A stretch of 47,322 nucleotides of DNA from Methanobacteriota archaeon (GTDB lineage: Archaea > Thermoplasmatota > Poseidoniia > Poseidoniales > Poseidoniaceae), in NCBI GenBank assembly GCA_002710015.1, contig PAOW01000009.1, positions 1-47,322 on the forward strand, written 5' to 3'. Under the pieces are notes generated by a model. It did no database searches and was not told where the DNA came from. It worked only from the letters and a program-made list of their open reading frames with translations. This document shows, piece after piece, positions 39,504 to 43,886 of this stretch; position 1 is the stretch's first letter, and every line of letters starts with the position of its first letter. A program made the position numbers and the translations under genes.

Positions 39504-39550
39504 ACAGAAAGTGACAACGTTCAATAGGGAATCCCTCATAGGGTAAATTG

Positions 39551-40498
39551 ATGTCACGACGACTGACTCTGTTGTTAGTCGGCACACTTGCCTTGCTCTT
39601 GGCTGCTCCTGCTTTTGGAAACTCACAAGGGCCACCATGGTTGCACAACGACAGAATCCTAGTAGAGGAAGGATGTAGTTGTCACGGAGCTGGTGGATCA
39701 CCCTCCTCAGAAATTATCCTATCTGTAACAGGAGTCCCTAGATTCTACAATATTAGCGAAACTTACTCGATGACAATATCTCTTGCACACCAGTCATACA
39801 TTGCAGGAGGATACATGATTTGGGATTATGGAGCTGGAGTCTTCACCCCAGGAGATGGATCTAAGATTGTTCCTGACTCCGGAGGCGCCCTCTCCCATGA
39901 TAATGTCGGTAATGATTGGATTATTGAATGGACTGCACCTGATTCTGACACTGGAGATGTGCACTTTTCATTGGCAGGCAACATAGTCGATGGTAGCGGA
40001 GCACCGGATGCTGGCGACCATTGGAATATACTGACGTTCACCATAAACTCTCCTGAAACCGCAACATCTGACGCTGATGTAAGCACACGAACAATAAGTA
40101 TAGGTAACTACGATTCCTTGTTTGGACAGAAGTCTGATGAAGAAATTGAAGCTGAGAAGCAAGCTGAAATTGCTAACAACTATTTCACACAAGGAAACCT
40201 GTATTTCTGGACCACTTTATCGATCATCATTGTAGCTGCAGTGATTCAAGGAGAATTCTACGAAAGAAGGTTCGGTGGAGGACCCCCTCACCTAGACATG
40301 CGACTTGCTGTTCCTCAAGGAATTCGCAGAGGTGTCATGAGTCTTGGTTTAGCCATAGGATTTGGTTGGGCTATCGATACTGCACTGCCGTGGGGATACA
40401 CTCTAGTTATAGGAATGTGTATGCTATGGGCTATTTTTGGTGTTTACAGAACTGTTGTTCAAGCGAGGGCAGAAAAAGATTCACCGGATATGGTTTGA
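39551..40498 (+). CDS. Surface protein with CxCH motif, reeler-like beta domain and C-terminal membrane helices
   Basis: 315 residues from ATG 39551 (a TTG at 39548 is also in frame). Signal peptide SRRLTLLLVGTLALLLAAPAFG, then EEGCSCHGAGG, a CxCH version of the CxxCH heme motif, leading into a beta-sandwich with YSMTISLAHQSYIAGGYMIWD and VHFSLAGNIVDGSGAPDAGDHW, which resembles Reeler / choice-of-anchor-V domains of bacteria that start with CxxCH. After position 200 three TM helices (FWTTLSIIIVAAVIQ, GVMSLGLAIGFGWAID, GYTLVIGMCMLWAIFGVY). Whether heme is bound is unclear. tatC starts 4 bases after the stop. Confidence 0.75.
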   Translation: MSRRLTLLLVGTLALLLAAPAFGNSQGPPWLHNDRILVEEGCSCHGAGGSPSSEIILSVTGVPRFYNISETYSMTISLAHQSYIAGGYMIWDYGAGVFTPGDGSKIVPDSGGALSHDNVGNDWIIEWTAPDSDTGDVHFSLAGNIVDGSGAPDAGDHWNILTFTINSPETATSDADVSTRTISIGNYDSLFGQKSDEEIEAEKQAEIANNYFTQGNLYFWTTLSIIIVAAVIQGEFYERRFGGGPPHLDMRLAVPQGIRRGVMSLGLAIGFGWAIDTALPWGYTLVIGMCMLWAIFGVYRTVVQARAEKDSPDMV

Positions 40499-40502
40499 TA
40501 GA

Positions 40503-41804
40503 ATGAATGACTTACGTTTACCAAGTGATCAACACGTAAGCGTTCAATCTCATTTAGATGAATTAACAAGAAGATTAACCGCCATAATTATTCTAGTATC
40601 TATTCTCACAGTAATATGGTCTTTCTCTGTTGGAGACCTTCTAAAGTATTCATTGAACCAAATGGATCCATGTTTGAGTTCCTCCCCATGTCTTACGGTT
40701 TTTTCACCTCAAGAATGGGCGGGTATGAAATGGCTTACGGCGGCCTTAATAGGGATCCTGACTGCTGGTCCGTATGCAATAATGCAAATGTATTCATTTG
40801 CCAAGCCAGGTCTCCTTCCCAGTGAACGCAAGACGTTTGTAAGCTGGATGATTGTAATTTGGTCAAGTGCATCTCTTTCCCTTTATTTGATAACGACAAA
40901 ATTTCTGCCATGGCTATATCAAAAAGGCCATGAAATGAATGGTGAATTGGCGCTAAAGCCTGTGTATGATGCCACAGAAATGCTCAAAATTTCAGTGAGT
41001 ATATCTTGGACGCTCGTCTTAATTTTGTCAGCTATTTCTATAATTATACTTGCAAATTTTACAAATTTAATATGGAAGGGTAACGCAGATTGGTGGAGAA
41101 TCCGTGTTTATGCTATTATGCTAATGATGCTATGGATAGCAACACCCACAGAAGTCCCAGGGTTATTCCTAATAATGGCCTTACTAGCCATAGGAAGTGT
41201 TGAACTATTTGGTTGGAAAGCATTCAGTGGACCAATACCTGTTGCACATGGCTTGAGAGAAATTTATGACGTTGATGGTGGAATACATAGGATACTATAT
41301 GCAGATTGTACTTGTTGCGGAACTTCACCACAAATCGATCCACTTCAAGGTATGGGTATAGTGCAGTATGATTCTGTTTGCAGGGATATTCAACAACAAA
41401 ACCATCTATTAGATCAGGTTAAAAAATATCGTATATCCAAAGTGGTATTTTCAGGATGTGTAGTCGATTCATTCTCTAAAGATTACCTTAAGTCATATGA
41501 AATACTAAAATGTGAGGTTGTTAGTTTGAATTTGTGCTACTTGAGTTCTTTGCGAACTATTTCAGACAATGTAGAATGCCGTTTAGCTATGGCAAATCTG
41601 ACTGCCCCATGGAGTGAAATTTCGTCGGCGGAAAGGTCTTTGGAAATAATAAATGAGAACAATTTCACAACGATATATTATGGCAATTCTATACCATTTG
41701 GATTGCACTTACAGAAAGATGAAACTTGGATTACCAATCCAACTAATGCTTTAATGAAAGAGTTAAGAAAATCGGGTTTCTCGTTGATACAATATAGCAA
41801 TTGA
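40503..41804 (+). CDS. tatC: TatC (twin-arginine translocase core) with extra cysteine-rich C-terminal domain
   Basis: 433 residues from ATG 40503 (frame start 40437 lies inside the upstream gene). Residues 1 to about 250 are TatC: QSHLDELTRRL at the N-terminus, VFSPQEW, GPYAIMQMYSFAKPGLLPSERK, SASLSLYLITTKFLPWLY, and the last helices with ATPTEVPGLFLIMALLA. TatC with TatA exports folded proteins carrying twin-Arg signals. From about 262 an added soluble domain of roughly 170 residues contains eight Cys: 269, 271 and 272 in DCTCCG, then singles in SVCRD, SGCVV, LKCEV, NLCYL and VECRL. By TatC topology it is cytoplasmic. No such domain is known to me in standard TatC. The metalloprotease gene follows directly. 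Confidence 0.88.
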   Translation: MNDLRLPSDQHVSVQSHLDELTRRLTAIIILVSILTVIWSFSVGDLLKYSLNQMDPCLSSSPCLTVFSPQEWAGMKWLTAALIGILTAGPYAIMQMYSFAKPGLLPSERKTFVSWMIVIWSSASLSLYLITTKFLPWLYQKGHEMNGELALKPVYDATEMLKISVSISWTLVLILSAISIIILANFTNLIWKGNADWWRIRVYAIMLMMLWIATPTEVPGLFLIMALLAIGSVELFGWKAFSGPIPVAHGLREIYDVDGGIHRILYADCTCCGTSPQIDPLQGMGIVQYDSVCRDIQQQNHLLDQVKKYRISKVVFSGCVVDSFSKDYLKSYEILKCEVVSLNLCYLSSLRTISDNVECRLAMANLTAPWSEISSAERSLEIINENNFTTIYYGNSIPFGLHLQKDETWITNPTNALMKELRKSGFSLIQYSN

Positions 41805-41834
41805 TTGATACCGAATAACATCATCATTCAATCA

Positions 41835-43886
41835 ATGCGACCAGTGATAGGGTGGCCAGTAGCAATAATTCTGGCAACTCTTTGTGTATTTTCGATAGTA
41901 AATGGTGAGGCTGTTAACAACTGGGTTGAAAACCACTCGGTTGATATTTCTCCCCAAGAAAACTATAATTTTGTAGGAATTACTGAAAACGAAGTCTGGT
42001 TAGTAGTATTGATTGATTTCCCAGATCAAAATGAACCCAATGGTTGTGACCAGAATAGGGCATCTGACCTTATTGATGATTCTGCTTTACAGCATATTCA
42101 ACAAGGTATAGGACCGAATTCCACTCTTATGATTGATTATCATAGTAAAATAGTGTCAACTCGAAGTAATATGGTAGATTACGGACATGACGAGAATGGA
42201 AAGAACGACGTGGGTAAAAACGGTGTGAGTCCTAATTCTCTAGCAAGAGAGGTTGTTGAATCAATAAAGAACGAAGTTTCATGGGAAAAATATGATCTTA
42301 ACTCAGATGGGATTGTTGACCGGTTTCTGATACTTCACTGCACTAAGCCACAAGACAACGGTGGATCAGCATCAAGCATCTGGTCACACTTTTCGTGGAT
42401 TGAAGAATCTGTTAAATTACCTGATGGAATGTCAATACACCACTATTCAATTGCTAGCCAACACTCATCCAGTGACTTAGGGACAATAATTCATGAAATG
42501 TATCACCAATTGGGTGCCGCAGATTTGTATGCAGTGGATGATGCCACAGTAACCCAAGTATGGAAGGGAATTGGAAAATGGGACATCATGGCAAGTGGAA
42601 ATCAAAATGGAAATGGTCTATATCCCGCTATCCCAACCAGTCCGAGTATTGAACTGATGGGGATTAACCGGCACTTGGATTTAGAATTAAGTTGGCCTAC
42701 AAATGAAAACTGCGTTGGGCCGCAAATTGAAATGCAAGGAATATCAGAGGGAGGAACTGCATTGAAAATTCCCCTTGGTGACCAAGAGTATATCTGGATA
42801 GAATATCGTAGCGACTCAGGATTTGATTCCCACCTACCAGGTAACGGAATCCTTGTTCTACAACAAGACTTACTTGCAGGGAACCTTGACGATAATAACA
42901 TAAATTCCCACCCTGAAAGAGCTTGGTTAAGAGTTATTGAGGCAGATGGAGAACAAAATATGGTTGCAGGGAACAATGAAGGAGAAGAAACTGATGTTTT
43001 CTGGGATAGTCAGGAATTTGGATATGCAGGTATAGAAATAAGAAATCGTGATGGTGTTCTTGTTGACTGGAAAGCAAAAGTAATTGTTAGCAATAACACT
43101 CCAACCATTGAATTTGAATCTGAATCATGTGGACATTCAACCGATGTAGACTTGCCAAATTATGGATCTGTGCTAACACCCGAAATGAGTATTCCAATCT
43201 ATGCCTCGTGTGAAGGGATAAGATTTGATTTGTCTAGCTCTGATAACAGGGAAATCTCAGTAATTGATGAAGAAATTATTTTCGCTACAAGAGGGACTGT
43301 TGGAGTTGTTGGTCTAATAACTGGCTATGTGTATTGTAATGAGGGGACACCTGTTGATGTCAGACATGAGTTTGAAATTCTTGGTAACATACCACTCGAA
43401 ACAAAATTTGAAGCAACTATCCACGTTACTGAGGAAACCGAATTAGAAATACCGATAGATTTCATAGGTGAAGATAAGCAAACATGGCTTTTAGGGGTTG
43501 ATGGAGCCCTATCTAGAATCGCTGTGGCAGATGATAATCAAGTCCTCAAGCCTGGAGACAGCATAACACTAGACATAAATCCAAATGGACTTTTGGAGGA
43601 TCGAATGTTTGTGCGAGGAAATCTCATATTAGCATCAGATTCGGGACACAGATACGAGATAGAAGTCGTGCTGCAAGCTAGTGACGGAGAAATCTCCACG
43701 ATTGAAGAATGGACCCAGCCGTCTAGATTAGTCCCGATTGCATTAGCGCTTGCAACGCTATGGGTTATACTTGGAATAAATTCACCTTCCAGGAAGGTGG
43801 CGGCTAAAGAGGAGGAAATTCCAACCTCCTTTGAAGATAGCAACCACCCATCCTTTATTGACGCCTTCAGCGAGTCTGACAGATAG
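41835..43886 (+). CDS. Secreted M6-like (immune inhibitor A-type) metalloprotease
   Basis: 683 residues from ATG 41835; a TTG at 41805, next to the tatC stop, is the alternative. N-terminal signal anchor (GWPVAIILATLCVFSIVNG). The zinc site is HEMYHQLGAADLY (His220, Glu221, His224 and a downstream acidic Asp230), as in M6 peptidases (HExxH-x-x-G-x-x-D). Preceding features: VVLIDFPDQ, YDLNSDGIVDRFLILH. The distal part carries beta domains and a C-terminal TM (LVPIALALATLWVILGI) with a short tail. Surface protein degradation is the likely role. The last 105 bases overlap endA on the other strand. Confidence 0.85.
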   Translation: MRPVIGWPVAIILATLCVFSIVNGEAVNNWVENHSVDISPQENYNFVGITENEVWLVVLIDFPDQNEPNGCDQNRASDLIDDSALQHIQQGIGPNSTLMIDYHSKIVSTRSNMVDYGHDENGKNDVGKNGVSPNSLAREVVESIKNEVSWEKYDLNSDGIVDRFLILHCTKPQDNGGSASSIWSHFSWIEESVKLPDGMSIHHYSIASQHSSSDLGTIIHEMYHQLGAADLYAVDDATVTQVWKGIGKWDIMASGNQNGNGLYPAIPTSPSIELMGINRHLDLELSWPTNENCVGPQIEMQGISEGGTALKIPLGDQEYIWIEYRSDSGFDSHLPGNGILVLQQDLLAGNLDDNNINSHPERAWLRVIEADGEQNMVAGNNEGEETDVFWDSQEFGYAGIEIRNRDGVLVDWKAKVIVSNNTPTIEFESESCGHSTDVDLPNYGSVLTPEMSIPIYASCEGIRFDLSSSDNREISVIDEEIIFATRGTVGVVGLITGYVYCNEGTPVDVRHEFEILGNIPLETKFEATIHVTEETELEIPIDFIGEDKQTWLLGVDGALSRIAVADDNQVLKPGDSITLDINPNGLLEDRMFVRGNLILASDSGHRYEIEVVLQASDGEISTIEEWTQPSRLVPIALALATLWVILGINSPSRKVAAKEEEIPTSFEDSNHPSFIDAFSESDR

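What the first reader, a model, noticed from the sequence alone, without database searches (positions are those of the whole stretch)
41286..41804. TatC with an unknown cysteine-rich cytoplasmic domain
After the last TatC helix about 170 residues follow with DCTCCG and five further single cysteines (SVCRD, SGCVV, LKCEV, NLCYL, VECRL). TatC normally ends shortly after its sixth helix on the cytoplasmic side, so the domain would face incoming cofactor-loaded substrates. It could bind a metal or Fe-S cluster and act in quality control of Tat substrates. I recognise no family.
Basis: partly seen in the sequence, partly recalled or inferred. Interest (0 to 1): 0.62.

Follow-up and report, generated by a model that had tools for sequence, protein, structure and literature searches.

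The report
Protein-export receptor carrying iron-sulfur-like domain
In the common surface-ocean archaea (Poseidoniales), the part of the folded-protein export machine that recognises cargo signals carries an extra domain inside the cell with four conserved cysteines; it resembles an iron-sulfur domain of a methanogen enzyme, so export could be tied to the cell's redox or iron-sulfur state.

Summary
The gene at 40503-41804 is one 433-residue open frame: a TatC (residues 16-223) followed by about 180 extra residues with no Pfam, NCBIfam or PDB sequence match. It is not a frameshift artefact: homologues occur in 259 of 293 genomes of the same archaeal order, at a conserved locus, in both families. 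Of the eight extension cysteines, four are conserved as a set (C269, C271, C293, C319: CxC-x21-C-x24-GC; all four in 73 of 87 homologues). The domain is not familyless. Its AlphaFold model has the HdrA subunit of heterodisulfide reductase as best PDB match, and profile comparison independently places it with HdrA's N-terminal Fe-S domain (score 37.5; 200 permuted controls reach at most 18.5). The fused TatC keeps the signal-peptide residues (E. coli F94/E103) in all readable homologues, while the second, plain TatC of these archaea lacks that loop in 25 of 25. So the domain sits on the cargo-recognising half of what looks like a split Tat receptor. Several lineages lost the cysteines or the whole domain but kept the TatC, so it looks accessory: most likely redox or Fe-S-dependent gating. 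Metal binding and function are untested.

The parts
40503..41804 (+). Fused TatC (called TatC2 here), 433 aa plus stop
   Evidence: Open frame; order-wide homologues
40548..41171 (+). TatC domain (Pfam PF00902, residues 16-223)
   Evidence: E 7e-15; best Foldseek hits are TatC structures (9e01_A, E 4.8e-5, prob 1.00)
40797..40826 (+). Signal-peptide-binding loop F99...PGLLPSE108, equivalent to E. coli F94 and E103
   Evidence: F in 86 of 86 readable and E in 87 of 87 homologues; alignments to E. coli TatC; F94A/E103A blocks signal-peptide binding in E. coli (PMC5201420)
41262..41552 (+). Core of the extension, about residues 254-350: HdrA-N-like alpha/beta domain
   Evidence: AlphaFold2 mean pLDDT 87 for the extension; Foldseek; profile comparison
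41307..41315 (+). CxC motif, C269 and C271
   Evidence: Cys in 77 and 75 of 87
41379..41381 (+). C293
   Evidence: Cys in 75 of 87
41454..41459 (+). GC motif, G318 and C319
   Evidence: C319 in 78 of 87; G and C invariant in the 46-sequence alignment
41553..41801 (+). Distal part of the extension, residues 351-433, present in most of family f1 and shortened elsewhere
39548..40498 (+). Conserved gene immediately upstream: probable signal peptide, CxCH motif kept in all homologues seen; likely co-transcribed
   Evidence: Adjacent in all 27 named loci; no Pfam match
41805..43886 (+). Conserved downstream gene, M6-type peptidase
   Evidence: PF05547 E 1.6e-9; synteny

Best explanation
A divergent TatC paralogue of Poseidoniales acquired a cytoplasmic C-terminal domain related to the N-terminal Fe-S domain of HdrA. 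SHOWN: the fusion, its order-wide presence at a conserved locus, four conserved cysteines, HdrA-N-like fold and profile, retention of the twin-arginine recognition residues in this TatC, and their absence in the plain paralogue. INFERRED (about 0.75): the four cysteines bind one Fe-S cluster ([4Fe-4S] or [2Fe-2S]). INFERRED (about 0.8): by six-helix TatC topology the domain lies in the cytoplasm, near where cargo docks. INFERRED (about 0.35, the preferred mechanism): the cluster state (present or absent, oxidised or reduced) changes the domain's shape and so biases cargo docking or TatA recruitment, tying export to the redox or Fe-S supply of the cytoplasm. It is an accessory regulator and not a catalytic part of the pore.
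For: Fusion in 259 of 293 order genomes; extension profile found fused to TatC across both families; synteny including Thalassarchaeum. Four conserved Cys, kept even where the extension shrinks to about 90 residues. HdrA best PDB fold match (7bkd_A prob 0.99, E 3.8e-3; further HdrA chains from other methanogens in the top 30). Profile comparison 89% probability, score 37.5; permuted controls at most 18.5, reversed 12.6, MvhD 17.6. HdrA's N-terminal domain holds an Fe-S cluster (PMC9012536, PMC12054007). Signal-peptide site kept in TatC2 and missing in 25 of 25 TatC1. Cysteines lost together, usually with shortening of the extension, while the TatC part stays: they behave as one unit, with an accessory role.
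Against: No metal or redox measurement. The spacing between CxC and the third Cys is shorter than in HdrA. Two homologues (L113, L114) lack only C271, so four ligands are not always required (HdrA's own N-terminal domain takes one ligand from a partner subunit). Lineages without the domain persist, and nothing links the domain to a particular cargo.
Confidence: 0.5

Rival explanations
1. Cargo docking: the domain recruits or checks Fe-S or other cofactor-bearing Tat substrates, acting like a built-in maturation chaperone.
For: The domain is on the TatC that keeps the signal-peptide site and lies on the cytoplasmic side by topology. Tat is known to export folded, often cofactor-bearing proteins (PMC3827258).
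Against: No specific cargo found: the one Rieske protein in the genome looks soluble and no Pfam Tat-signal match passes its cut-off. Dedicated docking would not by itself need an Fe-S cluster.
Confidence: 0.2
2. Electron transfer: the cluster passes electrons between a cytoplasmic donor and another membrane component, TatC serving mainly as membrane anchor.
For: The HdrA N-terminal cluster lies on an electron path (PMC9012536). The neighbouring genes are nicotinamide transhydrogenase subunits and a conserved extracytoplasmic CxCH protein.
Against: No partner redox centre is known in TatC. Transhydrogenase subunits as neighbours may reflect only general gene order. The Tat recognition residues are strictly kept, which a mere anchor would not need.
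Confidence: 0.15
3. Structural metal site (for example zinc) stabilising a protein-protein interface between TatC1 and TatC2 or with TatA, without redox function.
For: CxC...C...C can also bind zinc (general knowledge); the domain varies in length and has been lost repeatedly; the two TatCs look complementary.
Against: Closest fold and profile relative is an Fe-S domain.
Confidence: 0.15

Closest known systems
N-terminal Fe-S domain of HdrA (heterodisulfide reductase subunit A; e.g. PDB 5odc, 7bkd)
   Same: CxCG...(M/L)C...(x)C cysteine order, alpha/beta fold, third-to-fourth Cys distance 25 versus 26 residues; profile probability 89%
   Different: Fused to TatC and not to a flavin domain; shorter stretch between CxC and the third Cys; these archaea showed no HdrA match; an extra distal part in f1
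TatC (PF00902)
   Same: Six-helix TatC fold; HLxEL, F94 and E103 equivalents kept
   Different: C-terminal domain added; E170, D211 and Q215 equivalents not kept; far below the NCBIfam TatC cut-offs
FlpD/MvhD (PF02662)
   Same: Small cysteine-rich electron-transfer domain, itself related to HdrA-N in this comparison (81%)
   Different: Direct comparison with the extension is weak (2.7%)

Membership tests
TatC (PF00902) | Pfam profile match over the curated cut-off | tested here: met
   55.8 bits against 25.1
TatC (PF00902) | TatC three-dimensional fold | tested here: met
   Foldseek 9e01_A and other TatC structures, prob 1.00
TatC (PF00902) | Signal-peptide residues F94 and E103 | tested here: met
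   F99 86 of 86 readable, E108 87 of 87
TatC (PF00902) | TM4-TM6 residues E170, D211, Q215 | tested here: not met
   By alignment the positions hold other residues; D211 equivalent variable (E217 in 17 of 87). These are conserved features of bacterial TatC, so membership in the family stands on profile and fold
TatC (PF00902) | Translocates twin-arginine cargo | not testable with these tools
   Needs complementation
HdrA N-terminal Fe-S domain | Cysteine pattern CxC...C...C | tested here: met
HdrA N-terminal Fe-S domain | Profile and fold similarity above controls | tested here: met
   Score 37.5 against at most 18.5 in 200 permutations; HdrA top fold hit, though E-values are marginal
HdrA N-terminal Fe-S domain | Binds an Fe-S cluster | not testable with these tools
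   No spectroscopy
HdrA (whole protein) | FAD-binding thioredoxin-reductase domain follows | tested here: not met
   The extension ends at residue 433
FlpD/MvhD (PF02662) | Profile match | tested here: not met
   No Pfam hit; hhalign 2.7%
CCG domain (HdrB type, PF02754) | CCG motifs and profile | tested here: not met
   The second Cys of the CC in DCTCCG is Cys in only 8 of 87; no Pfam hit

The most novel reading that the evidence does not exclude
Poseidoniales run a split Tat receptor in which one TatC recognises cargo and the other supplies the conserved TM5/TM6 site, and the recognising half carries an HdrA-type Fe-S cluster that switches folded-protein export on or off with the redox or Fe-S state of the cell: a direct metabolic gate on a protein translocase.
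Probability: 0.25. Interest if true: 0.85.

Novelty: new variant of a known kind. Interest (0 to 1): 0.62.

Why it matters
No report of a TatC carrying an Fe-S-type domain was found in the held papers. If the domain binds a cluster, it gives a concrete handle on whether Tat translocases sense the state of the cell or of their cofactor-bearing cargo, in one of the most abundant archaeal groups of the surface ocean. The division of conserved TatC features between two paralogues gives a natural separation of signal recognition from the TM5/TM6 site, a long-studied question in Tat mechanism.

Tried and rejected
Frameshift or missed stop: rejected. CCG/HdrB-type site from DCTCCG: rejected, as the second Cys of CC is not conserved. 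MvhD/FlpD: rejected. Sequence searches of Pfam, NCBIfam and PDB with the extension: nothing significant; weak sub-threshold NCBIfam hits to three HdrA models (0.07-0.13) were a lead only. The upstream gene as a dedicated Tat substrate: in this genus its signal starts MSRR or MSRK, but the twin arginine is not kept in other genera, so not adopted. Rieske protein as cargo: looks soluble.

Full report
WHAT IS THERE. The finding lies in a single 433-residue open frame at 40503-41804 on the + strand. Residues 16-223 match Pfam TatC (E 7e-15). About 180 residues follow, with no significant hit in Pfam, NCBIfam or the PDB by sequence. The genome is a 1.7 Mb draft of a Poseidoniales-type archaeon: the closest named records are Candidatus Poseidoniaceae, Poseidoniales and Thalassarchaeaceae genomes.

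IT IS REAL AND OLD. Homologues of the whole protein occur in 259 of 293 genomes of the order. A profile of the extension alone finds it in 157 of 244 genomes of the class, in frames long enough to be the TatC fusion unless cut by a contig end. The gene order transhydrogenase subunits - CxCH protein - fused TatC - M6 peptidase is kept across the order, including Thalassarchaeum. In family f2 the extension is often only a core of about 105-130 residues; most of f1 has about 170-210.

THE CYSTEINES. In the 46-sequence alignment the invariant extension columns are C269, C271, C293, G318 and C319. In 87 homologues all four cysteines are present in 73; three of the other 14 are unreadable at one position, cut by a contig end, or lack the extension. 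In a side set two proteins, L113 and L114, lack only C271.

LOSSES. Proteins at the same syntenic locus have lost the cysteines in separate subclades of genera g2, g3, g4 and g5, and the extension is absent in one further g2 genome and in members of f2 genera g12 and g14. The maximum-likelihood tree of the TatC part places these in different clades, so several independent losses are likely; some deep branches are long and weakly supported. In another g2 subclade the extension shrank to about 90-100 residues and still keeps the four cysteines. The TatC part persists throughout: the domain behaves as a unit and is accessory. A second TatC is present in most of these genomes too.

WHAT THE DOMAIN IS. 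AlphaFold2 with 25 homologues gives mean pLDDT 87, pTM 0.80. The best PDB match is HdrA of the Methanospirillum complex (7bkd_A, prob 0.99, E 3.8e-3), and further HdrA chains (7bkb, 5odi, 5odc, 5odh, 8rvy, 8rvu) rank within the top 30. HdrA chains also appear with the full-length model. E-values are marginal and TM-scores low, so this alone would be weak. Independently, a profile of the core compared with HdrA N-terminal sequences gives probability 89%, score 37.5; 200 column-permuted controls reach at most 18.5, the reversed alignment 12.6, and MvhD 17.6. Both share the order CxCG...(M/L)C...(x)C. HdrA's N-terminal domain binds an Fe-S cluster, one ligand of which comes from the partner HdrA (PMC9012536; also PMC12054007). 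No HdrA match was found in the Poseidoniales genomes listed in the HdrA survey.

A SPLIT RECEPTOR. These archaea have a second, plain TatC. In 87 fused proteins the equivalents of E. coli F94 and E103 are kept wherever readable; mutating both blocks signal-peptide binding in E. coli (PMC5201420). In 25 of 25 plain TatCs of the order the loop is missing, whereas the PPD motif (D211 region, a TatA/TatB contact listed in PMC3827258) is kept in 25 of 25; the fused protein of the window has TPTE there, and the position is variable in its homologues. Inference: the two TatCs work together, the fused one recognising cargo. Relatives of the same class outside the order (family f3) show both TatC types, and the TatC2-like protein read there lacks the extension.

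MECHANISM. Shown: fusion, conservation, HdrA-N-like fold and profile, retained recognition site. Inferred: cytoplasmic position, one Fe-S cluster, and gating of export by its state. Rivals: cargo docking, electron transfer, structural zinc site.

LIMITS. No metal measurement; coordinates of models were not available to measure cysteine distances; genomes are incomplete drafts; cargo not surveyed genome-wide. Searches of the held papers found no description of this fusion, but most subscription papers are not held.

Noticed in passing
Loci L253-L257, L259-L278 (plain TatC): The plain TatC of the order lacks the F94...E103 signal-peptide loop in 25 of 25 but keeps PPD: the two TatCs look complementary.
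   Followed up: yes
window 40671-40691: C57 and C63 in the first extracytoplasmic loop of the fused TatC: each Cys in 54 of 56 family f1 proteins, absent in f2; possible disulfide.
   Followed up: partly
window 39548-40498: Conserved upstream protein with signal peptide and a CxCH motif kept in all homologues seen, no Pfam match; twin-arginine-like start in this genus only.
   Followed up: partly
window 43782-43886: M6 peptidase gene and the convergent gene overlap at their 3' ends by about 105 bases; similar overlap in close relatives.
   Followed up: no
L008 (G220): A genome of family f2 carries a g1-type copy beside an f2-type copy; probably contamination of the draft genome.
   Followed up: no
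L235: The one TatA found in the genome lies next to a MoaD-like small protein gene.
   Followed up: no
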